Source of the DNA: Kutzneria buriramensis
GTDB lineage: Bacteria > Actinomycetota > Actinomycetes > Mycobacteriales > Pseudonocardiaceae
Direction: 5' to 3'
Length of the DNA stretch: 64,000 nucleotides
Assembly (NCBI RefSeq): GCF_003387475.1
Contig: NZ_QUNO01000003.1
Span: 682,001 to 746,000, forward strand
This document shows positions 9,282 through 29,488 of this stretch, one piece after another (the stretch's first letter is position 1; each line of letters starts with the position of its first letter). Both the position numbers and the translations under genes were made by a program. Below the pieces are notes generated by a model. The model ran no database searches. It was not told where the DNA came from and saw nothing but the letters and a program-made list of their open reading frames with translations.

Positions 9282-9346
9282 GGCCAGCTCCCATCGTCGA
9301 AGGACGGCGGCGGCCGGATCTCCGACGATACCGCCGCCCCTCAAGG

Positions 9347-9358
9347 TGGTCTAGACCA
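9347..9358 (-). promoter_or_regulatory. DasR-type operator (dre) of the chitinase gene
   Basis: TGGTCTAGACCA is a perfect 12-bp palindrome equal to the core of the published Streptomyces dre consensus. It lies 66 bases before the chitinase start and overlaps a possible -35; a TATCGT -10 (9325-9330) lies 17 bases downstream of the TAGACC within it. Confidence 0.8.
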
Positions 9359-9380
9359 GATCGGCGCATTTACCGGAAAC

Positions 9381-9433
9381 GCCACATGCGCTTCCTATGT
9401 GGCATCAGATGACACATAGGAAGCGCATGTGGC
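9381..9433 (-). terminator. Long perfect hairpin after nrnA
   Basis: A 21-bp perfect stem (GCCACATGCGCTTCCTATGTG at 9381-9401, complement at 9413-9433) with an 11-base loop, 17 bases past the nrnA stop. It probably ends the nusA-infB-rbfA-nrnA transcript and insulates the chitinase promoter. Confidence 0.8.
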
Positions 9434-9450
9434 AGAAAAGGCGGGCGGTG

Positions 9451-10437
9451 CTAGTGGGCGGGGGTAGCCTCGGCGAGGGCGGCGCGGATGCCGGCGACGA
9501 CCTCCTCGGCGGTGCCGTGGCCGGTGAAGCCGGCGGCCAGGCGGTGACCGCCGCCGCCGAACCGCACGGCCACCGACCGCACGTCCAGCCGCCCGACGGC
9601 CCGCAGCGAGACGGTCCACTCCCCGGACGGGGTTTCCTTCAGGACTGCGGCGACTTCGGCCTCCGAGGTCGACCGCACGACGTCGATGACGCTCTCGACC
9701 TCCTCCGCCCGCACCCCGGCGGCGTCGGCCCGACGCACGACGGCGTGCACGAAACCCAGCCCCTGAGCGGCATCCGGCTCCAGCTGGGCGGCCGACAGCA
9801 CCGAGGCGAGCATGCCCAGCCAGGCGAACGGGTGGCTGTCCATCAGGCCGCGGATCAGGCCGGCGCCGTCCACGCCGGCCTCCAGCAGCCGGGCGGCCAG
9901 CCGGTGCGTTTCCGGCTTGGCGAAACGGAAGGACACGGTGTCGGTGGCGATGCCGGCGTACAGGCAGCGGGCGATCGGCTCGTCGATCTCGACGGCGAGC
10001 TCGTCCAGCAGCCGGGCCACGATCACGGCGGTGGCCTCGGCGCGGTCGTCGACCAGGTTGTGGCTGCCGTAGCGGGTGTTCGACACGTGATGGTCGACGA
10101 CGAGCGAGACGTCGGCGGTGGCCACCCGGTCGCCGAGCGGGCCGAGCCGGTCCACGCTGCCGGTGTCCAGGGCCACCAGCACCGGCACTACGGCCGGCAC
10201 CTCGGCGGCGGGCACGAAGAGGCCCTCGGAATCCAGTACCCGCAACGACTCCGGCACCGCGGACGGCGCGCCGAAGGACACGCGGACGGTCGCGCCGCGC
10301 CGCCGCAGCGCCAGGCCCAGGGCCAGCGCGCTGCCCAACGCGTCGGCGTCGGGATTGACGTGGGCCAGCAGCGTGACGTCGGCCGCCGCGCCCAGCAGGG
10401 CGGCGGCGGCCGTGACATCAACCTCGGGTGCGGTCAC
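9451..10437 (-). CDS. nrnA: DHH-family phosphoesterase, NrnA-like
   Basis: 328 residues. DHH motifs: HVNPDADALGS (about 26-36), VALDTG near residue 90 and VVDHHVSN near 115; the DHHA1 domain ends in RFGGGGHRLAAGF. Family members degrade short oligoribonucleotides, pAp or the linear products of c-di-AMP. The start is GTG 10437. It is the last gene of the rimP-nusA-infB-rbfA-nrnA series and is followed by a long hairpin (9381-9433). The gap to rbfA is 15 bases, consistent with co-transcription. Confidence 0.92.
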   Translation of the reverse strand: MTAPEVDVTAAAALLGAAADVTLLAHVNPDADALGSALALGLALRRRGATVRVSFGAPSAVPESLRVLDSEGLFVPAAEVPAVVPVLVALDTGSVDRLGPLGDRVATADVSLVVDHHVSNTRYGSHNLVDDRAEATAVIVARLLDELAVEIDEPIARCLYAGIATDTVSFRFAKPETHRLAARLLEAGVDGAGLIRGLMDSHPFAWLGMLASVLSAAQLEPDAAQGLGFVHAVVRRADAAGVRAEEVESVIDVVRSTSEAEVAAVLKETPSGEWTVSLRAVGRLDVRSVAVRFGGGGHRLAAGFTGHGTAEEVVAGIRAALAEATPAH

Positions 10438-10452
10438 ACCCGAACGCTACCG

Positions 10453-10905
10453 TCACTCCGAGTCCGACTCCTCCTCGCGGGGAGCCTTGTACGGGTCGGC
10501 CTCGCCGGCCGGCTGCGCGCCGGAGGCCAGCTGCGCCACCTCGGCGTCCGACTCGCGGGCCTTGGCCAGCAGCTCCTCGATCCGCTTGGAGTCGGTCGGG
10601 ACGGTGTCGGCGACGAAGGCCAGCGTGGGCGTGAACCGCACGCCGGTCTGCTGCCCCACCATGGTCCGCAGCACACCGGTCGCGCTGGTCAGCGCGGCGG
10701 TGACGCCGGCGTGGTCGGGAGCGGACTCCAGGTTGTCGCCGAGCACGGTGTAGTACACGGTCGCGTCGTGCAGGTCGGGGGTGACCCGGGCGTCGGTGAT
10801 GGTGACCCGGGCCAGCCGGGGGTCCTTCACCTCGTGTTCCAGCGCGGACGCCACGATCTGGGCGATCCGCTTGGCGAGCCTGCGGGCGCGGGCCTGATCG
10901 GCCAC
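10453..10905 (-). CDS. rbfA: Ribosome-binding factor A
   Basis: 150 residues. It assists late maturation of 16S rRNA and the 30S subunit. Seen: [25 protein letters not shown], a KH-type fold with [12 protein letters not shown], and [10 protein letters not shown] near the end, plus an acidic C-terminal tail. The start is GTG 10905: GAGGAGGAGC lies six to twelve bases upstream, inside the possible ATG start at 10920, which therefore is probably not used. It sits between the DUF503 gene and nrnA. Confidence 0.95.
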
Positions 10906-10935
10906 GGCGCTCCTCCTCATGAGTAGTGACAGGTA

Positions 10936-11232
10936 CTAGTCGTCCTCGGGGCCGAGCAGCCGCTGCCGCGCGGACAGGACCTGGAGCTCGGGCCGGGAGG
11001 ACACCAGCCGCTCGCACGCGTCGAGCACGTCCCGGACGTGCTCCGCGTCGGCGGCGACCACCGACACCCCGACCAGGGCGCGGCGGTGCAGGTCGAGATG
11101 ACCGGCCTCGGCGACCGAGACCTCGTACTTGCGTCGGATCTCGGCCAGCACCGGCCGGACCACGGAACGCTTCTCCTTCAGCGAGTGGACGTCGCCCAGC
11201 AGCACGTCCAACTCGAGGGCACCGACGAACAT
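10936..11232 (-). CDS. DUF503 (YlxP-like) protein
   Basis: 98 residues, matching DUF503 length. MFVGALELDVLLGDVHSLKEKRSVVRPVLAEIRRKYEVSVAE is the family signature. The function is unknown; a link to ribosome assembly is inferred from its constant place between infB and rbfA. Starts at 11232, 11238 or 11244 are all in frame; 11232 fits the family N-terminus best, though no strong ribosome binding site is present. A hairpin (11258-11284) separates it from infB. Confidence 0.88.
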   Translation of the reverse strand: MFVGALELDVLLGDVHSLKEKRSVVRPVLAEIRRKYEVSVAEAGHLDLHRRALVGVSVVAADAEHVRDVLDACERLVSSRPELQVLSARQRLLGPEDD

Positions 11233-11257
11233 GGGCATCACCATGGGCGGACGCCCA

Positions 11258-11284
11258 GCGGGGCCGGCCGAGAGCCGGCCCCGC
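11258..11284 (-). terminator. Hairpin between infB and DUF503 gene
   Basis: A perfect 11-bp stem (GCGGGGCCGGC and complement) with a 5-base loop, 13 bases after the infB stop. There is no T-run; it is a terminator or mRNA-processing hairpin that could lower expression of the downstream genes. Confidence 0.65.
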
Positions 11285-11297
11285 GGGCGCCACTTGT

Positions 11298-14200
11298 TCA
11301 GTTGCGGGGCTTCTCCCGCATCTCGTACGTCTCGACGGTGTCGCCGACCCGCAGGTCGCCGTAGTTGCCGAGGGTGAGACCGCACTCGAAGCCCTCGCGG
11401 ACCTCGGTCACGTCGTCCTTGAAGCGACGCAGCGAGGTGAGGGTCAGGCTCTCCTGGATCACGACGTTGTCGCGGATCAGGCGCGCCTTCGAGTTGCGCT
11501 TGAGCTCGCCGGACATCACCAGGCAGCCCGCGATCGTGCCGACCTTGGAGGACTTGAAGACGTCGCGCACCTCGGCCCGGCCGAGCTGCACCTCCTCGTA
11601 CTCCGGCTTGAGCAAGCCCTTGAGGGCCTGCTCGATCTCGTCGATCGCCTGGTAGATGACCGTGTAGTAGCGGACCTCGACGCCCTCGCGGTTGGCGAGT
11701 TCCGTGGCCCGGCCCTCGGCCCGGACGTTGAAGCCCAGGACGATGGTGTTGTCCGTCGCGGTGGCGAGGTTGATGTCGCTCTCCGTGACACCACCGACGC
11801 CGCGGTGCACCACGTGCAGCTCGACGTCGTCGCCGACCTCGATGTTCATCAACGCGGACTCCAGCGCCTCGACGGTGCCGGAGTTGTCGCCCTTGATGAC
11901 CAGGTTGAGCTGGCTGGTCTCCTTCAGCGCGGCGTCCAGGTCCTCCAGGCTGACGCGCTTGCGGCGGGACGCGTTGAGGGCGTTGCGGGTGCGGGCCTGG
12001 CGGCGCTCGGCGATCTGCCGGGCCACCCGGTCCTCGTCCACGACCAGGAAGGTGTCGCCGGCCCCGGGCACCGAGGTCAGACCGATCACCTGCACAGGAC
12101 GGGACGGCATCGCCTCGATGACGTCCTCGTTGTGCTCGTCGACCATGCGCCGGACGCGCCCGTAGGCGTCGCCGGCGACGATCGAGTCGCCCACCCGCAG
12201 CGTGCCGCGCTGCACCAGCACCGTGGCCACCGGGCCGCGACCGCGGTCCAGGTGCGCCTCGATCGCGACGCCCTGGGCCTCCATGTTCGGGTTGGCCCGC
12301 AGGTCGAGCGCGGCGTCCGCGGTCAGCAGGATCGCCTCCAGCAGCTGGTCGATGTGCAGACCCTGCTTGGCCGAGATGTCGACGAACATGGTGTCGCCGC
12401 CGTACTCCTCGGCCACCAGGTTGTACTCGGTCAGCTGCTGGCGGATCTTCTGCGGGTTCGCGCCTTCCTTGTCGATCTTGTTCACCGCGACCACGATCGG
12501 CGCGCCGGCCGCCTGGGCGTGGTTGATCGCCTCCACCGTCTGCGGCATCACGCCGTCGTCAGCGGCGACGACGATGACCGCGATGTCGGTGGAGTTGGCG
12601 CCACGGGCACGCATGGCGGTGAACGCCTCGTGACCCGGGGTGTCGATGAAGGTGATCAGCCGCGGCTTGCCCTCCAGCGAGGTCTCGACCTGGTAGGCGC
12701 CGATGTGCTGGGTGATGCCGCCGGCCTCGCCCTCGTGCACGTTCGCCTTGCGGATCGTGTCCAGCAGTCGGGTCTTACCGTGGTCGACGTGACCCATGAC
12801 GGTCACCACCGGCGGCCGGATCACGAGGTCGTCCTCGCCACCGGCGTCCTCGCCGTAGGTGATGTCGAAGGTCTCCAGCAGCTCGCGGTCCTCCTCCTCG
12901 GGGGAGACCACGTTGACCACGTAGTTCATCTCCGAGCCCAGGAGCTCCAGGATCTCGTCGGAGACGGACTGGGTCGCGGTGACCATCTCACCGAGGTGGA
13001 ACAGCACCTGCACCAACGCCGCCGGGTTCGCGTTGATCTTCTCCGCGAAGTCGGTCAGCGACGCGCCGCGCGGCAGCCGGATGGCCTCGCCGTTGCCCTT
13101 GGGCAGACGGACGCCGCCGACGCTGGGCGCCTGCATGTTGTCGAACTCTTGGCGCTTCTGGCGCTTCGACTTGCGACCACGGCGCGCGGGACCACCGGGA
13201 CGGCCGAACGCACCCGCGGCGCCGCCGCGACCGCCGGGACCACCCGGACGACCGCCGCCACCGCGGAAGCCGCCGCCACCACCGGCCGGAGCGCCGGCAC
13301 CGCCGCCGCCACCACCCGGACGGAAGCCACCGCCACCGCCGCCACCGCCGCCGGGACGGAAGCCACCGCCACCGCCGCCGCCCCCACCGGGACCGCCACG
13401 GAAACCGCCGCCACCGCCGCCGCCACCAGGGCCGCCACGGAAACCGCCACCGCCGCCGCCCCCACCGGGACCGCCACGGAAGCCACCGCCACCGCCGCCC
13501 CCACCGGGACCGCGGCCGCCGCCACCACCGGGACCGCCGGAGCGGCCGCCACCACCGGCCGGCCGGGCCGGTCGGGGCGGCATCATGCCCGGGTTGGGCC
13601 GAGGCGGCATGTTGCCCGGGGTCGGGCGGGGACCGCGATCGCCGCCGCGGTCGCCGGACGGACGGTCGCCGCGCGGGGCGCGGTCGGGCCGGCCGTCACC
13701 GGGACGCGGCCGGTCGCCGCCGCCCTGGGCGGGCGGGCCCGGACGGGGCCCGCTGGGACGCGGCGCGGGCGCGTTGGAGCCCACGCCGAAGGGGTTGTTG
13801 CCGGGACGCGGCGCGCGCGGGCCGGGCTTGGGGCCCTGCTGGCGCGGCGGCACCGTGGCGCCGCCGTCCTGCTGCGGCTGCTGCCGGGGGCCGGGACGCG
13901 GGCCGGGACGGTTGCCCTGGCCCTGGGACTGCGGCCGGGACGGCGCCTGCTGACCGGCCGACGCGGCGGCCGGGGCCTGCTGCGACGGCTGGGGACGCTG
14001 CTGCTGCGGCGCCGGCGCGGGGGCCGGGCTGGACAGCTGCGGCTGCGTAGGCGGCTTCGGAGCCTGCGGAGCCGGGGCCTGGGCGGTCTCGGCCGGAGCG
14101 GCCGCCGCGGCGGCCGGGGTCTCCGCCGGCTTGGGGCTGGGGCGCGGACCCGGACGCGGGCCGGGCATGGGGGGACGCTGGCCGGGGGCGCCGGCCGGCT

Positions 14201-17574: not shown

Positions 17575-17637
17575 CCAATGCAGGGAAGGACGCCTTACCC
17601 GCATTGGACGCAGGTAAGGCGTCCTTCCCTGCATTGG
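17575..17637. repeat. Dispersed hairpin repeat, copy B
   Basis: A perfect 25-bp stem: the left arm at 17575-17599 starts CCAATGCAGGGAAGGACG and the right arm is at 17613-17637, with a 13-base loop. It shares GGAAGGACGCCTT and the GCA(T/G)T centre with the copy at 28722. It sits between convergent genes, probably a two-way terminator. Confidence 0.9.
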
Positions 17638-20032: not shown

Positions 20033-20051
20033 CCCAGCCTTGCGAGGTGCC

Positions 20052-22970
20052 GTGACCGGCCGGCGCGAACGCACGCGGGGTACGGCGGAGGACCCTGACC
20101 GGGCGCCGCTGGTCGGCCGGGCGGACGCGCTGCGCTCGGTGGACAAGACGCTGGACCGGGCAGGAAAGGGCGCGTTCCAGCTGTTGGAGCTGGTCGGCGA
20201 GCCGGGGGTGGGCAAGAGCCGGCTGCTGGCCGAGGCGGTGGCGGCGGCCCGCGGCAAGGGCATGCTGACGCTGGTCGGCCGGGCCTCGGAGTTCGAGCGG
20301 GACGCCCCGCTGGCGGCGGTCGCCGACGCGCTGGACGACCACCTGGAGACGTTGTCGGACCGTCAGCTGGCCCGCCTGAGCGACGGCGAGCGGCGGCTGC
20401 TGGGCTCGGTGTTCGCGGGCATCGCCACGGACGTCCCGGCCGAGGCCACGGACCGCTACCGGCTGTACCGCGCCGTGCGGGGCCTGCTGGAGCTGCTGGC
20501 CGAGTCCGGCGGCATGGTGCTGGTGCTGGACGACGTGCACTGGGCCGACGAGAGCTCGGTGGAGCTGCTGGACCACCTGCTGCGGCACCCGCCGCGCGGC
20601 CGGCTCGTGGTTGCGGTGGCCTACCGCCCGGGCCAGGCGTCGCCGCTGCTGGTGGCGGCGCTGGGCTTGGCCCAGCCGACCCGCCGCGTACGGCTGGATG
20701 TGGCGCCGCTGACCGAGCAGGAGACCGAGGAACTGCTCGGCCCGGACGTGAACCACACCCGCCGGCGCTGGCTGTTCGAGGCGAGCGGCGGCAATCCCTT
20801 CTACCTGGAAGCGCTGTCCCGGATGAACGGCGGCCGGGTGCCGGCGCCGCGGGACGCGCAGAGCGAGGCGTTCCCGTCGATGACGGCCGAGGTGCCGGAC
20901 ACGGTGCGGGCGGCGCTGCTGATGGAACTGACCAGCCTGAGCCGGATCGGGCAGCTGGTGGCGAAGGCGGCCGCGGTCGTCGGCGACGAGTTCGAGCCGG
21001 CGGCGGTCGCCGCGGCCGGTGAGATCGCCGAGTCGGACGCGCTGACGGCGTTGGACGAGCTGGTGGCCCGGGACGTGGTGCGGCCGGACGCGGCGCGCTT
21101 CCGGTTCCGGCATCCGCTGGTGCGGCACGCGGCGTACGCGTCGGCGAAGGCCGGCTGGCGGATGGGCGCGCACGGGCGGGCGGCGCACTTCCTGCGCGGC
21201 AAGGGCGCGCAGCCGCAGATGCTGGCGCACCACGTGGTGAACTCCGCCCCGTTCGGGGATCTCGCGTCGGTCGGCGAGCTGGCCTCGGCGGCGCAGGCCG
21301 TGGTCTCGCGCGCCCCGGCGACGGCGGCGCACTGGCTGGGCAACGCGCTGCGGCTGCTGCCCGACAACGAGGCGACGCGGCCGACGCGCTGCAATCTGTT
21401 GCTGGCGCTCGGCAACGCCCAGTTGACCAGCGGCCAGCTGGGCGCGGGCCGCGACTCGGCCCGTGAGGCGTTGCAGCTGCTGCCGGCCGAGGACCTGACC
21501 CGACGGGCGATCGCCGCGCGGCTGTGCGCGACGACGGAGCGCATGTTGGGGTCACGGGAGGCGGCGAAGGCTGTCCTGCTGGCGGAGCTCCGCAAGCTGC
21601 CGGACCCGTTGATGGTCGAGGCGGCGCCGCTGTACCTGCGGCTGGCCGTGGAGTACGTGGGCACGGGCGAGGCCGCGGAATGCGCGCGGATGCTGGAGGA
21701 GCTCACCAAGCTGGACCACCTGGACCCGCCGACGGCGTTCGCGGCCACGGCGCTGGGCGTGATGCCGGCCTACATCGCCGGCGACATCCCGGGCGCGCTG
21801 GACCGGCTGGACGAGGTGGACCGGCTGATGTCCCGGCTGACCGCCGCGGAGATCACGCCGTGGATGGACATCTGCGCGTGGCTGTGCTGGGCCGAGCTGA
21901 TGGTCGGCCGGCATTCCTCGGCGCTGGCCCGGCTGGACCGGGTGACCGAGCTGGCGCGGTCCACCGGGCAGCAGTTCGTGCTGGCGTACCTGTTGTCCGC
22001 CAAGATCTTCGCGCTGGGCCGGATGGGACGGCTGACCGAGGCGGCGACGGTGGCCGAGGAGGCGTGCGACATCGCGCGGCTGGTCGGCTCGGGCGACGCG
22101 CAGACGATCGCGCTCACCTCCCAGGCGCTGGTGCTGGCCTGGGCCGGCGAGTACCCGGCCGCGCTCAAGGCGGCCAGCGGGGGCGCGCAGGCCAACCAGC
22201 CGAGCAAGGTCTACTGGTCGGTGCTGGCCGGCTGCATGCGCAGCCTGGTGCTGATCTACTCCCGCGACCTCGAAGCGGGCAAGCCCGCGGTCCTGGCCGC
22301 GTGCGACGAGTTCGAGCTCGAGGGCGTCCGCGACGAGACGCTGATGCTGATCTGCCTGGAGGCGATCGCGCACGCCGAGGCGATCGCCGGCAACCCGGGC
22401 GCGGGCCTGCCGCTGGCCGACCGCGCCGACGCGATCCGGCACCCCGACCACGAGGTCAATGTCGCGATCGCCGACCTGATCCGGGCGCACGCGGTGAGCG
22501 GCTCGGACCCGTCGACCTCGGCGCGGCTGGCGCTCCGGGCCGCGGACACGCTCACGGGCCCTGACTACCGTCTGGAGGAGGGCCGCGCGCGGCTGCGCGC
22601 CGGCCAGAGCCTCGCCGCCGCCGGCGACCGCGCGGGCGGGCTCAGGCAGCTGGCCATCGCGGCCGAACTGTTCGCCACGGCCGGCGCACGCGGGCTGCAC
22701 GCCCAGGCCACCGAGGCGCAGCGCCGGCTCGGCCAACGGGTGCCGGTGCCGCGCGGCGGCCGCCGGCCGGAGCTGCCGTTCGGGCTGTCGGCCCGCGAGT
22801 TCGAGGTGGCGCGGCTGGTCGTGGAGGGCCGGACGAACGCCCAGATCGCGGAGCGGCTGTCGCTGAGCCTGCGGACGGTGGAGACGCACCTGACGCGCGT
22901 GTTCGGCAAGACCGGGGTGCCGGCGCGGGGCGGCCTGGGCCGCGTGCTGGGCCCGCACCTCGAAAACTGA
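20052..22970 (+). CDS. LAL-type LuxR transcriptional regulator with AAA/NACHT-like ATPase
   Basis: 972 residues. N-terminal Walker A GEPGVGKSR (about 44-52) and Walker B-like LVLDDVHWADE (about 155); then winged-helix and TPR-like helical repeats over about 300-880, and a C-terminal LuxR HTH (LSAREFEVARLVVEGRTNAQIAERL ... TVETHLTRVFGKTGV, about 905-965). Large ATP-binding LuxR regulators activate maltose, antibiotic and other operons after binding an inducer. The start is GTG 20052 behind GCGAGG; TTG 20040 is less likely. It lies directly upstream of, and in line with, the four-gene hydrolase/GMC/patatin/C-domain operon, which it may control. Confidence 0.92.
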   Translation: MTGRRERTRGTAEDPDRAPLVGRADALRSVDKTLDRAGKGAFQLLELVGEPGVGKSRLLAEAVAAARGKGMLTLVGRASEFERDAPLAAVADALDDHLETLSDRQLARLSDGERRLLGSVFAGIATDVPAEATDRYRLYRAVRGLLELLAESGGMVLVLDDVHWADESSVELLDHLLRHPPRGRLVVAVAYRPGQASPLLVAALGLAQPTRRVRLDVAPLTEQETEELLGPDVNHTRRRWLFEASGGNPFYLEALSRMNGGRVPAPRDAQSEAFPSMTAEVPDTVRAALLMELTSLSRIGQLVAKAAAVVGDEFEPAAVAAAGEIAESDALTALDELVARDVVRPDAARFRFRHPLVRHAAYASAKAGWRMGAHGRAAHFLRGKGAQPQMLAHHVVNSAPFGDLASVGELASAAQAVVSRAPATAAHWLGNALRLLPDNEATRPTRCNLLLALGNAQLTSGQLGAGRDSAREALQLLPAEDLTRRAIAARLCATTERMLGSREAAKAVLLAELRKLPDPLMVEAAPLYLRLAVEYVGTGEAAECARMLEELTKLDHLDPPTAFAATALGVMPAYIAGDIPGALDRLDEVDRLMSRLTAAEITPWMDICAWLCWAELMVGRHSSALARLDRVTELARSTGQQFVLAYLLSAKIFALGRMGRLTEAATVAEEACDIARLVGSGDAQTIALTSQALVLAWAGEYPAALKAASGGAQANQPSKVYWSVLAGCMRSLVLIYSRDLEAGKPAVLAACDEFELEGVRDETLMLICLEAIAHAEAIAGNPGAGLPLADRADAIRHPDHEVNVAIADLIRAHAVSGSDPSTSARLALRAADTLTGPDYRLEEGRARLRAGQSLAAAGDRAGGLRQLAIAAELFATAGARGLHAQATEAQRRLGQRVPVPRGGRRPELPFGLSAREFEVARLVVEGRTNAQIAERLSLSLRTVETHLTRVFGKTGVPARGGLGRVLGPHLEN

Positions 22971-23146: not shown

Positions 23147-24217
23147 ATGAACCGTGAGATCCCGCTCTACACCCTCGACGGTGTGCGCGACGCGGATGTG
23201 AGCGTTCACCCGGTGACCACCCTGGACGGCCTCGGCCTGACGCTGACCCGGTTCCGCCGGGAGCCCGCCGAGGACGTCGTGCTGCTGGTGCACGGCCTGA
23301 CCTCGTCCACGGACATGTTCGTCATGCCGGAGCACCGCAACCTGGTCAACCACCTGCTGGACAACGGGTTCGGCGAGGTGTGGTCCTTCGACTCCCGCAT
23401 GAGCAACCGCCTGCCGTACAACAAGTCGCAGCACCGGTTCACGCTGGACGACCTGGCGCGCAACGACTATCCCGCGGCACTGTCCGAACTCCGCCGCCAC
23501 GTCGGGGGGCGGCGGATCCACGTGGTCGCGCACTGCCTCGGCTCCGTGTCCTTCCTGATGAGCCTGTTCTCCGGGGCGGTCGGGGACATCGCGAGCATGG
23601 TGTGCAACAGCGTCGGCCTCACCCCACGGGTGCCGCTGTGGTCGCGGGCGCGCCTGGTCGCCGGCCCGGACGTCGTCGAGTACGGCCTGCGCCAGCCGTA
23701 CCTGGACCCGCAGTGGGGCGACGCGCCGGCGTTCACCACCGGCTGGGCGGTGTCCAAGGTGATGTCGGTGCTGCACCCGGAGTGCTCGGTGCCGGCCTGC
23801 CACCTGCTCAGCATGATGTGGGGCACCGGCTGGCCGGCCATGTACGAGCACCGCAACCTGCTGCCGGTCACGCACCAGCGGATCGGCGACATCTGCCAGG
23901 CCAGCGGCGTCAACTACGACCGGCACGTGCGCAAGATCATCTTCGCCGGCCGGGCCGTGGCCTACGACACCGGCGAGGACTACACCGCCGACCTCGGCGC
24001 CGTGACGACCCCGCTGCTGCTGCTCACGGGCTCGCACAACCGGGTGTTCATCGACTCGCAGCAGGTGTTCCACCGCCGGCTGGAGGAGGCCGCGCCCGGC
24101 CGGCACGAGCTGCGGGTGCTGCCCGGCTACGGGCACCTCGACCCGTTCATCGGCAAGCACGCCGACCTCGAGGTGTTCCCGCACATCGTGGACTTCCTGA
24201 AGCAGCGGGCCTCGTGA
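23147..24217 (+). CDS. Alpha/beta hydrolase with Cys at the nucleophile elbow
   Basis: 356 residues. VVLLVHGLTSSTDMF (oxyanion His-Gly) is followed by VVAHCLGSVSF, where the normal GxSxG nucleophile Ser is Cys130; the catalytic His is likely H330 (PGYGHLDPF). The usual acid-loop region reads LLTGSHNRVF without an obvious Asp. A Cys elbow is known in dienelactone hydrolases and also in hydrolase domains found with cholesterol-oxidase-like GMC enzymes. It is the first gene of a coupled four-gene operon; ATG 23147 follows GGGGGG, and its stop overlaps the GMC start (TGATG). Confidence 0.88.
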   Translation: MNREIPLYTLDGVRDADVSVHPVTTLDGLGLTLTRFRREPAEDVVLLVHGLTSSTDMFVMPEHRNLVNHLLDNGFGEVWSFDSRMSNRLPYNKSQHRFTLDDLARNDYPAALSELRRHVGGRRIHVVAHCLGSVSFLMSLFSGAVGDIASMVCNSVGLTPRVPLWSRARLVAGPDVVEYGLRQPYLDPQWGDAPAFTTGWAVSKVMSVLHPECSVPACHLLSMMWGTGWPAMYEHRNLLPVTHQRIGDICQASGVNYDRHVRKIIFAGRAVAYDTGEDYTADLGAVTTPLLLLTGSHNRVFIDSQQVFHRRLEEAAPGRHELRVLPGYGHLDPFIGKHADLEVFPHIVDFLKQRAS

Positions 24218-26538
24218 TGGCCGGCCCACGGGGAACCGGGATCGAGACGGTCGACGCGGTGATCGTCGGCTCCGGCTTCGGCGGCTCCGTCGCCGCGCAC
24301 CGGCTCGCCGACGCGGGGCTGTCGGTCGTCGTGCTGGAGCGCGGCCGGGCCTGGCCGCCCGGCAGCTTCGCCCGCACGCCCGACGAGATGCACCACAACT
24401 TCTGGAACCCCGCGCAGGCCGACTACGGCCTGTTCGACGTGCTGGAGTTCCGCGGCTTCGACTCGGTGGTGTCGGCCGGCCTCGGCGGCGGGTCGCTGAT
24501 CTACGCGAACGTGTTGCTGCGCAAGGACGAGCGCTGGTTCGTGCAGGACAGCGAGCTGCCCGGCGGCGGCTACGAGTCGTGGCCGGTGACCCGCGAGGAC
24601 CTGGACCCGCACTACGACACCGTCGAGGCGATGCTGACGCCGAGCCGGTACCCGTTCGACGATCCGCAGTTCGCCGGCGTGCCCAAGACCGAGGCGTTCC
24701 AGGAGGCGGCCGCCGGGCTGGGCCTGGACTGGCAGCTGCCGCCGCTGGCCGTGGCGTTCGCGGCCAAGCCGGGCGGGCAGCCGGGCATCGGGCTGCCGAT
24801 CGTCGAGCCGTCCTACGGCAACCTGCACGGCCTGCCCCGGCGCACCTGCCGCCTGTGCGGCGAGTGCGACTTCGGCTGCAACGACGGCGCGAAACTGAGC
24901 CTGGACCACACCTACCTGTCGGCGGCCAAGGCGGCCGGCGCGGACCTGCGCACGATGTGCGAGGTGCAGGCGATCCGGCCCGGCGGCCCCGGCTACCAGG
25001 TCCGCTACCTGCTGCACGGCATGGACGGCAGCTCGGTGCCCAAGCGCATCGACTGCGAGCGCCTGATCCTGGCCGCCGGCTCGTTCGGCACCACCCGCCT
25101 GCTGCTGGGCAACCGCGCCAACCTGCCCGGGCTGAGCGCGGCGCTGGGCACGCGGTTCAGCGGCAACGGCGACATGCTGTCGTTCGCGCTGCACGCCCGC
25201 CGCGACGGCCGCCCGCGTCCGATGCACGCCAGCCGCGGGCCGGTGATCACCAGCACCATCCGGGTCCCGGACGAGCTGGACGAGGACGGCGGGGTCGGGC
25301 GTGGGTTCTACATCCAGGACTCGGGCTACCCGGTGATCCTGGACTGGCTCGTGCAGAACATGGACGTGCGCGGCGACCTGTCCCGGCTGACCGGCTTCAC
25401 CTGGAACCGGGTGCGCGCGCTGCTGCGCTGGACCGGCCCGGACCACCTGGAGCACGGCATCGGCCAGCTGATCGGCAGCGGCACGCTGTCCAACTGCTCG
25501 CTGCCGCTGCTGGGCATGGGCCGGGACGTGCCCGACGGCGTGATGCGGCTGCGCAAGGGCGAGCTGGACGTGTCGTGGACGACCGAGACCAGCCGGGACT
25601 ACATCGAGCGGGTCCGCGCGACCATGCGGGCCATCACCGGCGCGCTGGGCGGCGAGTACGTGGACAATCCGCTCTGGCTGCGCCGCCGGCTGGCGGTCGC
25701 GCACCCGCTCGGGGGCGCGCCGATAGGCCGCCATCCCGGCGAGGGAGTCTGCGACCCTTATGGCGAGGTGTTCGGGCATCCGGGCCTGTACGTTGCCGAT
25801 GGGGCCGCGATGCCGGGCCCGGTGGGCGCGAACCCCTCGCTGACGATCGCCGCGATGGCGGACCGTCTCTGCGATCATCTGTTGCTCGCGCGCGGTATGG
25901 CGGGGAGGTCGTCCGCGCGCGGTGGTCAGCGCCGTTCAGGGGGAACGACGCAGGCCACTCCGGTGGCACCGGCCCGTCTCAGCGGGGGTCGGACCGGTGC
26001 AGCCGCCCTCTCGTTCACCGAGGAGATGGCCGGCCAGGTCACCCTCGGTGAACGAGAGGGGCAGAACCCGCTTCGCCTGCACGTGACCGTGTCGATCGAG
26101 GACATGGACGCGTTCCTGGCCGACCCGCGGCACGAGGCCGCCGCCACCGGCTGGCTGGACTGCGAGCCGCTGGGCGGCCGGCTGCTGGTCGCCCGTGGCC
26201 GGGTCGAGCTCATGGTGACCGAGAGCGCCGGCGGGCGGCGGCGGATGCGCTACCGGCTGCCGTTCGCCGACGACCGCGGCCGTGAGCTGCTGCTCAGCGG
26301 GCACAAGGAGCTGCGGGCCGGGCCGCCGACGGCGATCTGGCCGGACACCACCACGCTGCACGCGAAGATCCTCTGCGACGGCGTCACGCTCGGCGCCGGC
26401 GAGCTGCGGCTGGGTGGGCTGGACTTCTTACGCGAGCTCACCACGATCCGCGCCGCCAGTCCGACCGTGCTGGAGCGCTTCGGCACGTTCTTCCTGGGCT
26501 CCCTGTGGCAGGTGTACCGCCCGAGGCTGACGTCGTGA
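24217..26538 (+). CDS. GMC-family flavin oxidoreductase (cholesterol-oxidase-like) with extra C-terminal domain
   Basis: 773 residues. The N-terminal FAD-binding fold has VIVGSGFGGSVAAHRLA (about 15-31) and LERGR; GLGGGSLIYAN follows. At residues 211-221 the sequence reads CRLCGECDFGC, a Cx2Cx2Cx3C pattern identical in spacing to [4Fe-4S] ferredoxin motifs. The GMC core ends HPLGG ... GLYVADGAAMPGPVGANPSLTIAAMADR near residue 560. After a 30-residue Gly/Arg/Thr linker comes a second domain (about 597-773, FTEEMAGQ ... VSIEDMDAFLADP) of the type attached to large GMC proteins. It should oxidise a sterol- or alcohol-like lipid. It is coupled at both ends (TGATG and GTGA). An 18-bp palindrome lies at the domain junction. 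Confidence 0.88.
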   Translation: MAGPRGTGIETVDAVIVGSGFGGSVAAHRLADAGLSVVVLERGRAWPPGSFARTPDEMHHNFWNPAQADYGLFDVLEFRGFDSVVSAGLGGGSLIYANVLLRKDERWFVQDSELPGGGYESWPVTREDLDPHYDTVEAMLTPSRYPFDDPQFAGVPKTEAFQEAAAGLGLDWQLPPLAVAFAAKPGGQPGIGLPIVEPSYGNLHGLPRRTCRLCGECDFGCNDGAKLSLDHTYLSAAKAAGADLRTMCEVQAIRPGGPGYQVRYLLHGMDGSSVPKRIDCERLILAAGSFGTTRLLLGNRANLPGLSAALGTRFSGNGDMLSFALHARRDGRPRPMHASRGPVITSTIRVPDELDEDGGVGRGFYIQDSGYPVILDWLVQNMDVRGDLSRLTGFTWNRVRALLRWTGPDHLEHGIGQLIGSGTLSNCSLPLLGMGRDVPDGVMRLRKGELDVSWTTETSRDYIERVRATMRAITGALGGEYVDNPLWLRRRLAVAHPLGGAPIGRHPGEGVCDPYGEVFGHPGLYVADGAAMPGPVGANPSLTIAAMADRLCDHLLLARGMAGRSSARGGQRRSGGTTQATPVAPARLSGGRTGAAALSFTEEMAGQVTLGEREGQNPLRLHVTVSIEDMDAFLADPRHEAAATGWLDCEPLGGRLLVARGRVELMVTESAGGRRRMRYRLPFADDRGRELLLSGHKELRAGPPTAIWPDTTTLHAKILCDGVTLGAGELRLGGLDFLRELTTIRAASPTVLERFGTFFLGSLWQVYRPRLTS
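26006..26060. repeat. 18-bp perfect inverted repeat inside the GMC gene
   Basis: CCCTCTCGTTCACCGAGG (26006-26023) is repeated inverted at 26043-26060 with a 19-base spacer. It lies in frame exactly where the linker meets the C-terminal domain. Confidence 0.85.
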
Positions 26539-27467
26539 GCGACGAGGTCGCGCTGGTGCTCTCCGGCGGCGGGGCGTCGGCGGCGTACTTCGGCGCCGGT
26601 GTCGCGCAGGGCCTGGCCGACGTGGGGCTGCGCCCGACCGTGCTGTCCGGGACGTCGGCCGGCGGGCTGAACGCCGGCCTGCTGGCCGCCGGCCTGTCGC
26701 CGCAGCAGCTGGTGGAGCTGTGGATCAACGTGCAGGGGCACGACGTCTACAAGCCGCGGCTGGACCTGTGGCGGCTGCTGCGGCCCGCCGGGCTGGTGCG
26801 GCTGCCCACCAGCGACCTGATGGGGTACGCGCTGGACTCCGTCGGCTGGACCTGGCTGCTCGACACCGCGCCGGCCCGCAAGACGCTGATCGCCGCGATC
26901 GGCGGCGAACGCCTGCGGATCGAGGAGGGGGTGCGGGTTGTCGTCGCCGCCGTCGAGGAATGCTCGGGCGAGGTCGTGCACTTCACCAACTCCGCACCGG
27001 AGGGCTCGGGGTTCCACGAGGTGCCGCTGACCGTCGACCACCTGATGGCCGGGGCGGCCGCGCCGATCCTGTTCCCGCCCGTGCACATCGACGGCCGCAC
27101 CTATGTGGACGCCGGCATGGTCGCGAACACGCCCTTGCAGCCCGCTCTCGCGTATGAGCCGCGGACCGTCGTGGTCGTGACGTCGTCCTGCGGGCGGCAG
27201 TCGACCACGCCGGCGTCCCTGGGCGACGCGCTGGGCCTGGCGTTCGAGAACGTCGCCCGGTTCGCGGTGCTGCGGGACTACGAGCACACCAAGCAGCTCG
27301 GCGAGCTCGGGCCCGGCGAGGCGCCCCGGCTGGTGCTCATCGAGCCCGGCGACGAGTTCGAGGTGTCCGGCTTCGCCCGGTTCGACCCGGACGTCGCCAG
27401 GACCGTCGTCGCGCACGGCCGGGCGCGGGCACGCGCGGCGCTGGCCACCGTCACCTCAGGGGGATGA
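26535..27467 (+). CDS. Patatin-like phospholipase
   Basis: 310 residues. The patatin dyad is intact: the oxyanion loop SGGGASAAYFGAG (about 9-21), the nucleophile in GTSAGG (S41) and the DAG motif VDAGMVANTPLQPAL (Asp near 192). The family hydrolyses acyl chains from phospholipids or other lipids, usually at the membrane; there is no signal peptide. The start is GTG 26535, overlapping the GMC stop; its own stop overlaps the next ATG. Its coupling with a GMC oxidase and a hydrolase suggests joint processing of a lipid substrate. Confidence 0.9.
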   Translation: MSDEVALVLSGGGASAAYFGAGVAQGLADVGLRPTVLSGTSAGGLNAGLLAAGLSPQQLVELWINVQGHDVYKPRLDLWRLLRPAGLVRLPTSDLMGYALDSVGWTWLLDTAPARKTLIAAIGGERLRIEEGVRVVVAAVEECSGEVVHFTNSAPEGSGFHEVPLTVDHLMAGAAAPILFPPVHIDGRTYVDAGMVANTPLQPALAYEPRTVVVVTSSCGRQSTTPASLGDALGLAFENVARFAVLRDYEHTKQLGELGPGEAPRLVLIEPGDEFEVSGFARFDPDVARTVVAHGRARARAALATVTSGG

Positions 27468-28711
27468 GCATGACCGCCTTTTCGACGTCCCGGTGGCCGC
27501 TGTCCGCCGCACAACACGGAATCTTCTCGGCGCACCAGGTGGATCCCGGTGGCGCCGCGCACAACGTCGCCGAGTACGTCGACATCGCGGGGCCCGTCGA
27601 CCACGGCCGCTTCGAGGAGGCCACCCGGCGCGCGGTGGCCGAGGCGGAGGCGCTGCACATGCGGTTCGCCGTCGTCGGCTGCCAGGACGTGGTGGCGGTG
27701 CGGCCGTGGCGGCTGGAGCCCGTCGACGTCAGCGCCTCGGCCGACCCGATGTCCGCCGCGCTGACTTGGATGCGAGCCGACCTCACATCTGCCGTCGACC
27801 TCGCCGACGGGCCGTTGTTCCGGCAGGCGCTGATCACCGTGTCGCCCGAGCGGGTGCTCTGGTACCACCGCAGCCACCGGATCGCCCTGGACCGCTATGG
27901 ACTGTTCCTTGTGGACCGCCGGGTCGCCGAGCTGTACAACGGCGTCGACGGGGAACCGTTCGATCCCTTACGACCCGTGGTCGACGAGGACGTCGCCTAC
28001 GCGCTGTCGGCCGGGTGGCGGCGGGACAGACGCTTCTGGCTCGACCGGTTCGCCGACGCGCCCGTGCCTATCGGGCTCACAGAGGGCTCCGCGCCGCCGT
28101 CGGCCGGCGTGCTCCGTCGCACCGTCGAGCTGCCCCGGACCGCCCTGGAGGACTGGGCCGAGGTCGCCGGCCGCTGCCACACCAGCTGGTCCGCCGTGGT
28201 CATCGCCGCCGTCGCCGCGTACCTGCGGCACGTCACCGGTACGTCCGAGGTCGTGCTCGGGCTGCCCCGCATGTGCCGGCGGCGCACCGCCGCCTTGAAC
28301 GTGCCCTGCTCGACGTCCAACACCATGCCGCTGCGGGTGCTCACCCCGCCCGGCGCCAGCCTGGCCGAGCTCGCCGGCGACGTCGCCGAGGAGGTCAAGG
28401 TGTGTCAGCCGCACGAGCGGTACCGGTCAGAGCTGCTGCGCCAGGAACTGCACATGCCCCGGCTGTACGGGCCCGTCGTCGACATCAACCCCATCAGCTA
28501 CGAGCTGGTGTTCGACGGGCGAACCGCCGTCGCCCACACGCTGTCCGCCGGGCCCGTGGAGGACCTGACCATCACCGTGCACGGCGGCCAGGGCGGCGCC
28601 GGGCCGCGCATCGACTTCGACGGCAACCCGGCGCTGTACTCCGGCGACGACCTCACCGTGCACCAGCAGGCGTTTCTGGACCTGCTGGAGACGGCCCCGG
28701 CCTTCGCCTGA
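27464..28711 (+). CDS. Stand-alone condensation-domain protein with degenerate HHxxxDG motif
   Basis: 415 residues, about one NRPS condensation domain. Seen: WPLSAAQHGIFSAHQVDP (C1 motif), WYHRSHRIALDRYGLFL at the catalytic C3 position and STSNTMPLRVL (C5-like). The C3 motif HHxxxDG is HRIALDR here (H138, R139, D143, R144): the second, catalytic His and the Gly are both Arg. Similar HRxxxDD changes occur in the non-catalytic X domains that recruit P450s. No adenylation or carrier domain is attached or nearby. It is the last gene of the operon, coupled by ATGA, and is followed by a 27-bp hairpin repeat. Confidence 0.85.
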   Translation: MSMTAFSTSRWPLSAAQHGIFSAHQVDPGGAAHNVAEYVDIAGPVDHGRFEEATRRAVAEAEALHMRFAVVGCQDVVAVRPWRLEPVDVSASADPMSAALTWMRADLTSAVDLADGPLFRQALITVSPERVLWYHRSHRIALDRYGLFLVDRRVAELYNGVDGEPFDPLRPVVDEDVAYALSAGWRRDRRFWLDRFADAPVPIGLTEGSAPPSAGVLRRTVELPRTALEDWAEVAGRCHTSWSAVVIAAVAAYLRHVTGTSEVVLGLPRMCRRRTAALNVPCSTSNTMPLRVLTPPGASLAELAGDVAEEVKVCQPHERYRSELLRQELHMPRLYGPVVDINPISYELVFDGRTAVAHTLSAGPVEDLTITVHGGQGGAGPRIDFDGNPALYSGDDLTVHQQAFLDLLETAPAFA

Positions 28712-28721
28712 TCGGGTCTTT

Positions 28722-28780
28722 GATGCAGTGAAGGCGTCCTTCCCTGCGTTGAGCGCAGGGAAGGACGCCTTCACTGCATC
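28722..28780. repeat. Dispersed hairpin repeat, copy C
   Basis: A perfect 27-bp stem: the left arm at 28722-28748 begins GATGCAGTGAAGGCGTCC and the right arm is at 28754-28780, with a 5-base loop. It lies between convergent genes, 10 bases from each stop. It shares its arms with copy B and its outer flank with copy A. Confidence 0.9.
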
Positions 28781-28789
28781 GGCGGGTTC

Positions 28790-29488
28790 TCACTGGCCGC
28801 CGGTGGTTCTCGTGACGACGTTGGAGGACGGGCCGTAGTAGAACGCCCGCACCCGGTAGGACGCCTCCTTCTCGTCGGGCAGGGTGATCAGGGCGAACGA
28901 GTTGATGTCCTTGTCCAGCGTGGCCACCACCGAGTAGTCGGCGGCGCCGGCGGGCTTGTCCTCCACGAGGTAGCCCTCCTCGTCGCTGGCGTTGTCGGTC
29001 CAGGTCAGCTGGATCCCGTTGTCCTGAATGACTTTCGCCTTCAGCCCGGTCGGGGCCCCGGCGGTGGAGCCGTCGCGGATGGAGTGGGTCACCGCCGGCC
29101 CGCCCGGCAAGGTGGCGGGCGCCGGGAAGTCGGTGGGCTGGTCGCCGGCGCCGCCCGGCACGGTGACGTCGACCGCGGTGGACGCCGGTCCGTAGTAGGG
29201 GCGGAGCCGGTAGTAGAACGGGGTCTGCGGCATCAGGTTGGGGTGGGTGTAGCTGTTCTGCCGCACCGGCATGAACTGCAACGTCGTCCACGGCCCGCCC
29301 GACGCAGTGGCGAACTCGATGATCCGGCCGGCGGCGGCCGGGTCGCTCCCGGTCCAGTCCAGCCGGATGTCGACGGGCGAGGTCATGGTGGCGGCCAGCA
29401 TGATGCCGGCCGGCGGGGTCGCCGCGGCGGAGCAGGCGGTCAGCGCCGCCCCGACGGCGGCGCAGCAGAGCACGAGCGCACGTTTCAC
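28790..29488 (-). CDS. Putative lipoprotein with two fibronectin type III-like modules
   Basis: 232 residues. The signal VKRALVLCCAAVGAALTAC has a lipobox (LTAC, Cys near residue 19). Two similar beta modules follow: residues about 35-110 (SPVDIRLDWTGSDPAAAGRIIEFA ... FYYRLRPYYGPAST) and about 140-232 (APTGLKAKVIQDNGIQLTWTDNASDEEGY ... YRVRAFYYGPSSN). Both show the LxWxD ... YRVRA(F/Y)YYGPS pattern of fibronectin III folds. It is probably surface-attached and binding; no catalytic site is seen. The start is GTG 29488. It follows the jelly-roll protein gene on the same strand after a hairpin. Confidence 0.82.
   Translation of the reverse strand: MKRALVLCCAAVGAALTACSAAATPPAGIMLAATMTSPVDIRLDWTGSDPAAAGRIIEFATASGGPWTTLQFMPVRQNSYTHPNLMPQTPFYYRLRPYYGPASTAVDVTVPGGAGDQPTDFPAPATLPGGPAVTHSIRDGSTAGAPTGLKAKVIQDNGIQLTWTDNASDEEGYLVEDKPAGAADYSVVATLDKDINSFALITLPDEKEASYRVRAFYYGPSSNVVTRTTGGQ

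What the first reader, a model, noticed from the sequence alone, without database searches (positions are those of the whole stretch)
23147..28711. Four-gene coupled operon of unusual composition: Cys-elbow hydrolase, GMC flavoenzyme, patatin lipase, degenerate condensation domain
Every junction overlaps (TGATG, GTGA, ATGA), so the four proteins are made together, and the operon sits directly behind an LAL regulator. The set suggests a lipid is released, oxidised and transferred, but no described pathway I know has this composition. The condensation domain has no carrier or adenylation partner nearby.
Basis: partly seen in the sequence, partly recalled or inferred. Interest (0 to 1): 0.85.

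Follow-up and report, generated by a model that had tools for sequence, protein, structure and literature searches.

The report
Lipid-enzyme operon with pseudo-condensation protein
A soil actinomycete of the genus Kutzneria carries a four-gene operon, apparently for cutting and oxidising a fatty molecule, in which three genes belong to a recurring toolkit and the fourth is a peptide-making domain that left its parent enzyme and lost its key catalytic residue yet is still preserved by selection.

Summary
The four genes, coordinates and overlaps are as described, in a Kutzneria-type genome. Six of 7 Kutzneria genomes held have all four in order (B is frame-broken in two of them, D in one); the seventh lacks the patatin. 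Outside Kutzneria, 19 of 21 family genomes with the hydrolase have a GMC gene in the same stretch, 7 the patatin, none the condensation gene; all 5 with it in the Crossiella genus have LAL-hydrolase-GMC-patatin. So hydrolase, GMC flavin domain, its C-terminal beta-barrel and often patatin form a modular lipid cassette, split, fused and permuted elsewhere. The condensation protein is a Kutzneria addition, akin to MxcG/EntF-type siderophore synthetases. Its HHxxxDG motif lacks the second His in 15 of 16 distinct orthologues, while dN/dS stays at 0.18-0.32. No carrier or adenylation domain was found in the window. A palindrome, TCGTGGTTTACCACGA (one spacer base differs in one genome), occurs once per genome in all 7, always upstream of the first gene. 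Best reading: a LAL-controlled hydrophobic-ester hydrolysis and alcohol-oxidation operon that recruited a pseudo-condensation domain for binding or scaffolding. Substrate unknown; the searches made showed no matching pathway.

The parts
20040..22970 (+). LAL-type regulator (AAA_16 N-terminus, LuxR/GerE HTH C-terminus); start codon uncertain (TTG 20040 or later)
   Evidence: Pfam AAA_16 and GerE; full-length homologue immediately upstream of gene A in 7/7 Kutzneria loci and in named Crossiella loci L054, L055
23064..23079 (.). Palindrome TCGTGGTTTACCACGA, candidate operator/promoter element 67 bp before the ATG of gene A
   Evidence: Pattern TCGTGGNTTACCACGA found once per genome in 7/7 Kutzneria genomes, always upstream of A (G004 differs at the free base); reversed-pattern control 0 in all 7; no other site in the window at <=3 mismatches; degenerate form 61-63 bp before A in 5 genomes of the Crossiella genus
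23147..24217 (+). Gene A: Cys-nucleophile alpha/beta hydrolase, 356 aa (Cys130 codon 23534-23536; His330)
   Evidence: Pfam Abhydrolase_1; Cys130 35/35, His330 35/35, Asn298 34/35; model pLDDT 88.9, best Foldseek matches gastric lipase and lysosomal acid lipase
24217..26538 (+). Gene B: GMC flavoenzyme, 773 aa; sterol-oxidase-like FAD core (about 24217-25896) plus C-terminal beta-barrel domain
   Evidence: GMC_oxred_N/C; best solved relatives cholesterol oxidases, His and Asn of the HPLGG...NP motifs aligned; 5855 homologues at E<=0.001 among the 7999 candidates scored
25990..26535 (+). C-terminal domain of B ('Bct'): small closed beta-barrel without a Pfam match; a free-standing gene in other genomes
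   Evidence: No Pfam match in this stretch; 23 free-standing proteins including the query's own; AlphaFold2 pLDDT 92.0; only beta-barrels of several unrelated families matched
26535..27467 (+). Gene C: patatin-like lipase, 310 aa (GTSAG Ser41; DAG Asp192)
   Evidence: Pfam Patatin 2.7e-30; Ser41 and Asp192 invariant in the 7 rows aligned
27464..28711 (+). Gene D: free-standing condensation-fold protein, 415 aa, HRIALDR in place of HHxxxDG (codons of H138-R139 at 27875-27880)
   Evidence: Pfam Condensation 2.6e-32; NCBIfam NRPS_MxcG 451 bits over residues 9-411; motif table; tree
28722..28780 (.). 27-bp perfect hairpin with 5-nt loop between convergent genes, probable terminator and downstream boundary of the operon
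   Evidence: 28712-28790 folds at -62.8 kcal/mol, z -10.9, 0 of 200 shuffles as stable; no T-run, and the consensus terminator scan did not list it

Best explanation
The locus is a dedicated, LAL-switched transcription unit for processing an esterified hydrophobic alcohol (lipid, isoprenoid or sterol-like). SHOWN: gene set, overlaps, conservation, a single operator-like palindrome per genome, a conserved Cys elbow in A, an intact Ser/Asp patatin dyad in C, an FAD-GMC core of the sterol-oxidase branch in B with a separate beta-barrel, and absence of the second His of D's motif together with continued purifying selection. INFERRED: A and C remove or move acyl groups (A through a Cys acyl-enzyme, C as acyl hydrolase); the flavin domain of B oxidises the freed alcohol while its beta-barrel holds or hands over the hydrophobic substrate; the LAL regulator binds the palindrome when it senses its ligand. 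D descends from an MxcG/EntF-type siderophore condensation domain taken up in the Kutzneria ancestor; it no longer works as an ordinary condensation catalyst and now serves as a binding or scaffold subunit (a pseudo-condensation domain), in the way that glycopeptide X domains (HRxxxDD) recruit oxygenases.
For: Four genes in order in 6 of 7 Kutzneria genomes, D next to C or B in 7 of 7. LAL-A-B-C without D in named Crossiella loci and in the 5 genomes of that genus that have A (in one, L120, the LAL was seen by tblastn on the same contig, L054). A with a B-type gene in 26 of the 28 family genomes that have A (in G042 the B is only 32% identical). Parts permuted, split or fused: A-Bct-C-Bcore (L075, L125), Bcore then C-Bct fusion (L081, L082), Bcore-Bct-A fusion of 1097 aa (L087). 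Extra partners elsewhere are lipid-type: FAD_binding_4 oxidase, OleD-like reductase (below that family's cut-off), MMPL, P450. Palindrome once per genome, 7 of 7. D: 451 bits to NRPS_MxcG; D orthologues form one group (100/100) inside a clade (98/95) that holds MxcG of Archangium. Second His absent in 15 of 16 distinct orthologues but present in 22 of 22 distinct tree relatives lying in frames of 798 aa or more and in 10 of 10 such relatives in L140-L150 (their domain content was not scanned). Structural Asp143 and Arg272 invariant in 21 of 21 rows. dN/dS 0.18-0.32 against A 0.26-0.35, C 0.11-0.24, Bcore 0.15-0.21, Bct 0.30-0.49. The second His positions both substrates in a starter condensation domain (PMC7804268, passages).
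Against: Substrate and reaction order are untested. Loss of the second His does not always abolish activity (review PMC11546977, passages, which also describes an active HQxxxDM domain). P0155 of K. albida keeps HHxxxDG, and genome G004, whose D is nearly identical to it, lacks the patatin, so D may be catalytic there. Not every free-standing relative lost the His: P0159, P0162, P0163 keep it. No X-domain entry was recognised among D's 29 PDB sequence hits. In G005 both B and D are interrupted by frame breaks, and in G001 B is: assembly errors or decay. The degenerate palindromes in the Crossiella genus are individually weak (279 of 3400 shuffled upstream stretches reach <=5 mismatches); their constant position is what counts. 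dN/dS rests on four close genomes (three for Bcore) and NG86 only.
Confidence: 0.5

Rival explanations
1. D is still an acyltransferase: a free-standing condensation enzyme like VibH or OaaC that takes acyl-CoA or a carrier-bound acyl group in trans and joins it to the product of A/B/C, so the operon is biosynthetic for an acylated lipid or fatty acid amide.
For: Free-standing condensation enzymes with soluble acceptors exist (OaaC, abstract and passages; VibH is described as a standalone domain, its soluble acceptor is recalled). D's closest solved relatives include acyl-loading starter domains: RzmA-Cs E 3.5e-75, CDA synthetase E 1.5e-55. At the acyl-length gate of RzmA (R148) D has Leu147 (read from the alignment). 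The genome holds 115 carrier matches elsewhere. P0155 keeps HHxxxDG.
Against: Second His replaced by Arg (12), Cys (1) or Asn (2) in 15 of 16 distinct orthologues, and the Gly of the motif replaced in the same 15. In the OaaC family the second His is over 99% conserved. No carrier or adenylation match in the window.
Confidence: 0.25
2. A, B and C are a catabolic set for environmental sterol, isoprenoid or wax esters switched on by the LAL sensor, and D is a passenger that is decaying and contributes nothing.
For: B resembles cholesterol oxidases and A resembles lysosomal acid lipase/cholesteryl ester hydrolase and gastric lipase. The Crossiella genus does without D. D's motif varies (R, C, N) and D is frame-broken in G005.
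Against: D keeps its place in 7 of 7 genomes and evolves under constraint like its neighbours. B is far below the cholesterol oxidase equivalog cut-off (176 against 850 bits).
Confidence: 0.2
3. Chance neighbourhood or annotation artefact without functional meaning.
For: None beyond the odd composition.
Against: Conserved overlaps, order and a single operator-like site per genome in 7 of 7 Kutzneria genomes; the A-B-C part recurs in another genus.
Confidence: 0.02

Closest known systems
MxcG (myxochelin) / EntF (enterobactin) condensation domains, starter-type
   Same: Gene D aligns over residues 9-411 with 451 bits to NRPS_MxcG and 154 bits to EntF
   Different: No adenylation, carrier or release domain in the protein; second His and Gly of the motif absent in most orthologues; sits in a lipid-type operon
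RzmA-Cs starter condensation domain (PDB 7C1H/7C1K)
   Same: Best solved sequence match, E 3.5e-75; Asp and floor-loop Arg of its structural salt bridge both kept
   Different: HRxxxDR instead of HHxxxDG; Leu at the R148 gate position
Free-standing condensation enzymes VibH and OaaC
   Same: Free-standing condensation fold outside a megasynthase (VibH match 6.4e-22)
   Different: Both keep the second His; OaaC has a carrier and adenylation partner in its own pathway (for VibH recalled)
X domain of glycopeptide NRPSs (HRxxxDD)
   Same: Condensation fold with Arg in place of the second His; recruits oxidising enzymes
   Different: X domain is part of an NRPS; no X-domain entry recognised among D's 29 sequence hits; recruitment by D is only inferred
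Bacterial cholesterol oxidase (1MXT, 1COY, 3COX)
   Same: GMC core, His and Asn of the active-site motifs aligned
   Different: Additional C-terminal beta-barrel; 176 bits against an 850-bit equivalog cut-off; no secretion signal noticed by eye (no signal-peptide program was run)
Gastric lipase / lysosomal acid lipase; PHA synthase
   Same: Gene A shares the alpha/beta fold with the former; weak profile matches to the latter, which also uses a Cys nucleophile (recalled)
   Different: Cys instead of the lipases' Ser (recalled); conserved Asn298 where the catalytic acid is usually found

Membership tests
NRPS condensation domain, catalytically competent | HHxxxDG motif with second His | tested here: not met
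   HRIALDR in the window; second His absent in 15 of 16 distinct orthologues, present in P0155
NRPS condensation domain superfamily (fold/sequence) | Pfam Condensation above gathering score | tested here: met
   112.6 bits, cut-off 30.6
MxcG equivalog (whole synthetase) | NF038078 score above 2300 bits | tested here: not met
   451 bits over the condensation part only
NRPS X domain | HRxxxDD motif inside a glycopeptide synthetase | tested here: not met
   HRxxxDR in a free-standing 415-aa protein
NRPS X domain | Recruitment of an oxidising enzyme | not testable with these tools
   No interaction data; the operon partner would be the flavoenzyme B. A P450 gene lies in the window at 57518-58705, 29 kb away
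Cholesterol oxidase (NF058674) | Equivalog score at least 850 bits | tested here: not met
   176.1 bits
Cholesterol oxidase (NF058674) | Active-site His and Asn of HPLGG...NP; catalytic Glu (roles recalled) | tested here: inconclusive
   His and Asn align; the stretch that should hold the Glu did not align
GMC oxidoreductase | GMC_oxred_N and GMC_oxred_C above cut-off | tested here: met
   28.5 (23.0) and 62.7 (24.6) bits
Patatin-like phospholipase | Pfam score, GxSxG Ser and DG/DA Asp dyad | tested here: met
   106.4 bits (27.7); Ser41, Asp192 invariant in 7 of 7 rows
CBASS phospholipase (NF041079) | Equivalog score at least 200 bits | tested here: not met
   47.1 bits
Cys-nucleophile alpha/beta hydrolase | Cys in nucleophile elbow conserved across the family | tested here: met
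   Cys at position 130 in 35 of 35 loci aligned; fold model
Known beta-barrel family (for Bct) | Clear structural homologue | tested here: inconclusive

The most novel reading that the evidence does not exclude
Gene D is a pseudo-condensation domain freed from non-ribosomal peptide synthesis and repurposed as a recruiting/acyl-binding subunit for a flavin oxidase-lipase assembly: an X-domain-like function that evolved independently, outside any assembly line, with the catalytic His lost (probably twice) while the fold stays under selection.
Probability: 0.2. Interest if true: 0.75.

Novelty: new variant of a known kind. Interest (0 to 1): 0.5.

Why it matters
It points to an apparently undescribed actinobacterial lipid cassette (Cys hydrolase, sterol-oxidase-like GMC, free or fused beta-barrel, often patatin) and to a natural series of orthologues in which a condensation domain goes from HHxxxDG to HNxxxDD/S and HRxxxDR. 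That series makes two questions testable: what the large family of proteins labelled 'cholesterol oxidase' with this beta-barrel oxidises, and whether condensation domains can live on as non-catalytic scaffolds outside synthetases. The once-per-genome palindrome offers a simple handle on a LAL regulator.

Tried and rejected
Chance cluster: rejected (conserved order). Part of an NRPS cluster: rejected for the window. D as an X domain by descent: not supported (hits; the tree held no X domain, so it does not test this). CBASS-type patatin: rejected by score. True cholesterol oxidase: not met. Bct fold name: Foldseek and VIA gave only generic beta-barrels. A wider regulon of the palindrome: none at exact match, one site per genome; no second site at <=3 mismatches in the window, so no sign of LAL self-regulation through it. 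Neighbourhoods of other free-standing condensation proteins (P0160 query, 394 genomes): nearly all matches lie in long frames; one likely free-standing relative (L139, with HHLILDA) has none of A, B, C in the fetched stretch L151; the HR-type Streptomyces proteins themselves were not located in a genome. Sigma-70 promoter scan: nothing. Literature for the composition: (and 55 for Kutzneria) showed no matching pathway; only listings were seen (3 of 3, 15 of 25, 12 of 13, 10 of 15 papers), apart from passages of the K. albida genome paper. YN00 estimates were unstable and G001's LAL coordinates contained a stop; only NG86 values are used. In alignment A5 one row (L042) had wrong coordinates and was dropped for A6.
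Full report
WHAT IS THERE. The window lies in a 12-Mb genome (G000, contig C3:682001-746000) whose close relatives include Kutzneria sp. 744 and CA-103260. A LAL-type regulator ends 176 bp upstream. The operon is followed after 10 bp by a 27-bp perfect hairpin between convergent genes (-62.8 kcal/mol, z -10.9). Upstream lie IF-2 and NusA genes and downstream a GGDEF-EAL protein, so this does not look like an antibiotic island. No carrier domain (115 matches genome-wide) and no adenylation domain (110 at E<=1e-10) lies in the window; the contig ends about 66 kb after the operon.

THE PROTEINS. A is an alpha/beta hydrolase with Cys130 in the nucleophile elbow: Cys in 35 of 35 loci where the position aligned, with His330 in 35 and Asn298 in 34 (a 12-row alignment is shown in full). 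Its AlphaFold2 model (pLDDT 88.9) matches gastric and lysosomal acid lipases best, as does a profile search (with a weaker match to a PHA synthase). A Cys-His-Asn triad is a guess from sequence. B has a GMC core whose closest solved relatives are cholesterol oxidases plus a C-terminal domain without a Pfam match, predicted as a closed beta-barrel (pLDDT 92.0). The barrel occurs as a free-standing gene elsewhere (23 proteins including the query's own). C is a patatin with Ser41 and Asp192 invariant in the 7 rows aligned. D is a condensation-fold protein of the MxcG/EntF type, nearest in the PDB to the acyl-loading RzmA starter domain.

CONSERVATION. Of 7 Kutzneria genomes held, 6 have A, B, C and D in order; G004 has no C at E<=1e-10. 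G004's D is nearly identical to P0155 of K. albida; whether G004 is K. albida or a sister species was not settled. In G005 B and D, and in G001 B, are interrupted by frame breaks; decay and assembly error cannot be told apart here. Of 390 family genomes searched, 28 have A at E<=1e-40, 7 of them Kutzneria. I looked at neighbourhoods in all 21 others (for G474 two of its three loci, for some only the part that the contig allows): 19 have a B-type gene in the fetched stretch (in G042 only 32% identical), 7 have C, and none has a D homologue at E<=1e-5. The two without B are G474 and G075. Arrangements: LAL-A-B-C (5 genomes, Crossiella genus), A-FAD oxidase-B-OleD-like (3), A-Bct-C-Bcore (2), A-FAD oxidase-Bct-Bcore (2), LAL-A-B (1), A-Bct-Bcore (1), B-A-P450 (1), B beside or divergent from A (4). 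In G474 (L137) a more distant A relative follows a PKS-condensation protein and an ACP-thioester reductase; L136 has the reductase, and L135 (G483) a similar layout that was not scanned. In 298 order genomes, 16 have B at E<=1e-60; of their loci, L081 and L082 show Bcore plus a C-Bct fusion and L087 a Bcore-Bct-A fusion, while L080 and L084-L086 show B without A or C in the stretch. Repeated splitting, fusing and reordering of the same parts is a classic sign of proteins that work together.

REGULATION. TCGTGG-TTTA-CCACGA stands 67 bp before the ATG of A. The pattern with one free spacer base occurs once in each of the 7 Kutzneria genomes, always upstream of A; only G004 differs at that base; the reversed control pattern occurs in none. 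In the Crossiella genus the same place (61-63 bp before A) holds a degenerate copy with 3-5 mismatches (5 genomes), and in L128, another locus with a full-length LAL homologue, one with 4; in nine A loci without that LAL the best match has 5-7 mismatches and lies elsewhere. Shuffled upstream stretches reach <=5 mismatches in 279 of 3400 cases, so single degenerate copies are weak evidence. I infer, without a binding test, that this is the site of the LAL protein.

THE CONDENSATION PROTEIN. The 19 D orthologue rows (16 distinct after merging three locus rows that equal or nearly equal database proteins; the broken G005 copy left out) form one fully supported group; the surrounding clade (98/95) includes Archangium MxcG and domains from long frames of the same family, with open forks near its base. 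Second residue of the motif: Arg in 12, Cys in 1, Asn in 2, His in 1 of the 16. All 22 distinct tree relatives in frames of 798 aa or more and all of L139-L150 keep His, as do P0157, P0159, P0162, P0163; the free-standing Streptomyces proteins P0158, P0160, P0161 have Arg. With G004/P0155, P0154 and G003/P0156 as one supported clade (100/95), the tree needs two changes: two losses, or one loss and one regain. I take two losses as likelier, since the residues differ (Asn against Arg). The Asp of the motif and the floor-loop Arg that form a salt bridge in RzmA are invariant in all 21 rows. dN/dS (NG86, four close genomes, 413 codons) is 0.18-0.32, like its enzyme neighbours. So the fold is kept and the usual catalytic residue is not. 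Papers: PMC11546977, PMC1894796, PMC13142362 (preprint), PMC7804268 and PMC4210621 were seen as passages, PMC7804268 also section 7. They say that the second His positions substrates, that its loss is sometimes tolerated, and that X domains carry HRxxxDD and recruit P450s.

HOW IT PROBABLY WORKS. A ligand-activated LAL switches on the unit; A and C remove or move acyl groups of a hydrophobic ester; B oxidises the alcohol, its barrel handling the greasy substrate; D binds acyl groups or partner proteins without condensing. Only the anatomy, conservation and motif changes are shown. An active D working in trans with a distant carrier remains possible (rival 1), and so does a catabolic set with a decaying passenger (rival 2). 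A curious single case points both ways: the only genome with an intact D motif among those examined is the one without the patatin.

VERDICT. I found no described pathway with this composition in the listings, which cover open-licence papers only.

Noticed in passing
window 17585-17627 and 28722-28780: Two related long hairpins (xAAGGCGTCCTTC arms) at gene ends; the exact 15-mer of the second occurs 4 times in this genome, 6 times in G005, once in G001 and in none of the other four, so they may be a small family of terminator-like or mobile hairpins.
   Followed up: partly
L137, L136 (genome G474); L135 (G483): Distant relatives of hydrolase A follow a PKS-condensation hybrid and/or an ACP-thioester reductase (L137 and L136 scanned; L135 similar in layout only), which suggests that this Cys hydrolase family also serves reductive-release polyketide pathways.
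   Followed up: partly
L073, L121, L122 (genus g8): The cassette there holds an FAD-linked oxidase and an OleD-like reductase next to A and B, a variant lipid pathway with a fixed gene order in the 3 genomes of that genus found to have A.
   Followed up: partly
P0158, P0160, P0161 (Streptomyces): Other free-standing condensation proteins with HRxxxDG/S motifs: loss of the second His outside Kutzneria too.
   Followed up: partly
L043 (G005) 8435-12893: Genes B and D are interrupted by frame breaks in this congener while A and C are open; error or decay not resolved.
   Followed up: no
L129, L130, L132, L133, L134: In these loci A is next to a gene of about 960 aa; in the two tested (L129, L132) it is a SARP/BTAD-NB-ARC-TPR regulator, so a different large regulator may replace the LAL protein.
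   Followed up: partly
window 57518-58705: A cytochrome P450 gene (Pfam p450, 135 bits) 29 kb downstream; no link to the operon was tested.
   Followed up: no
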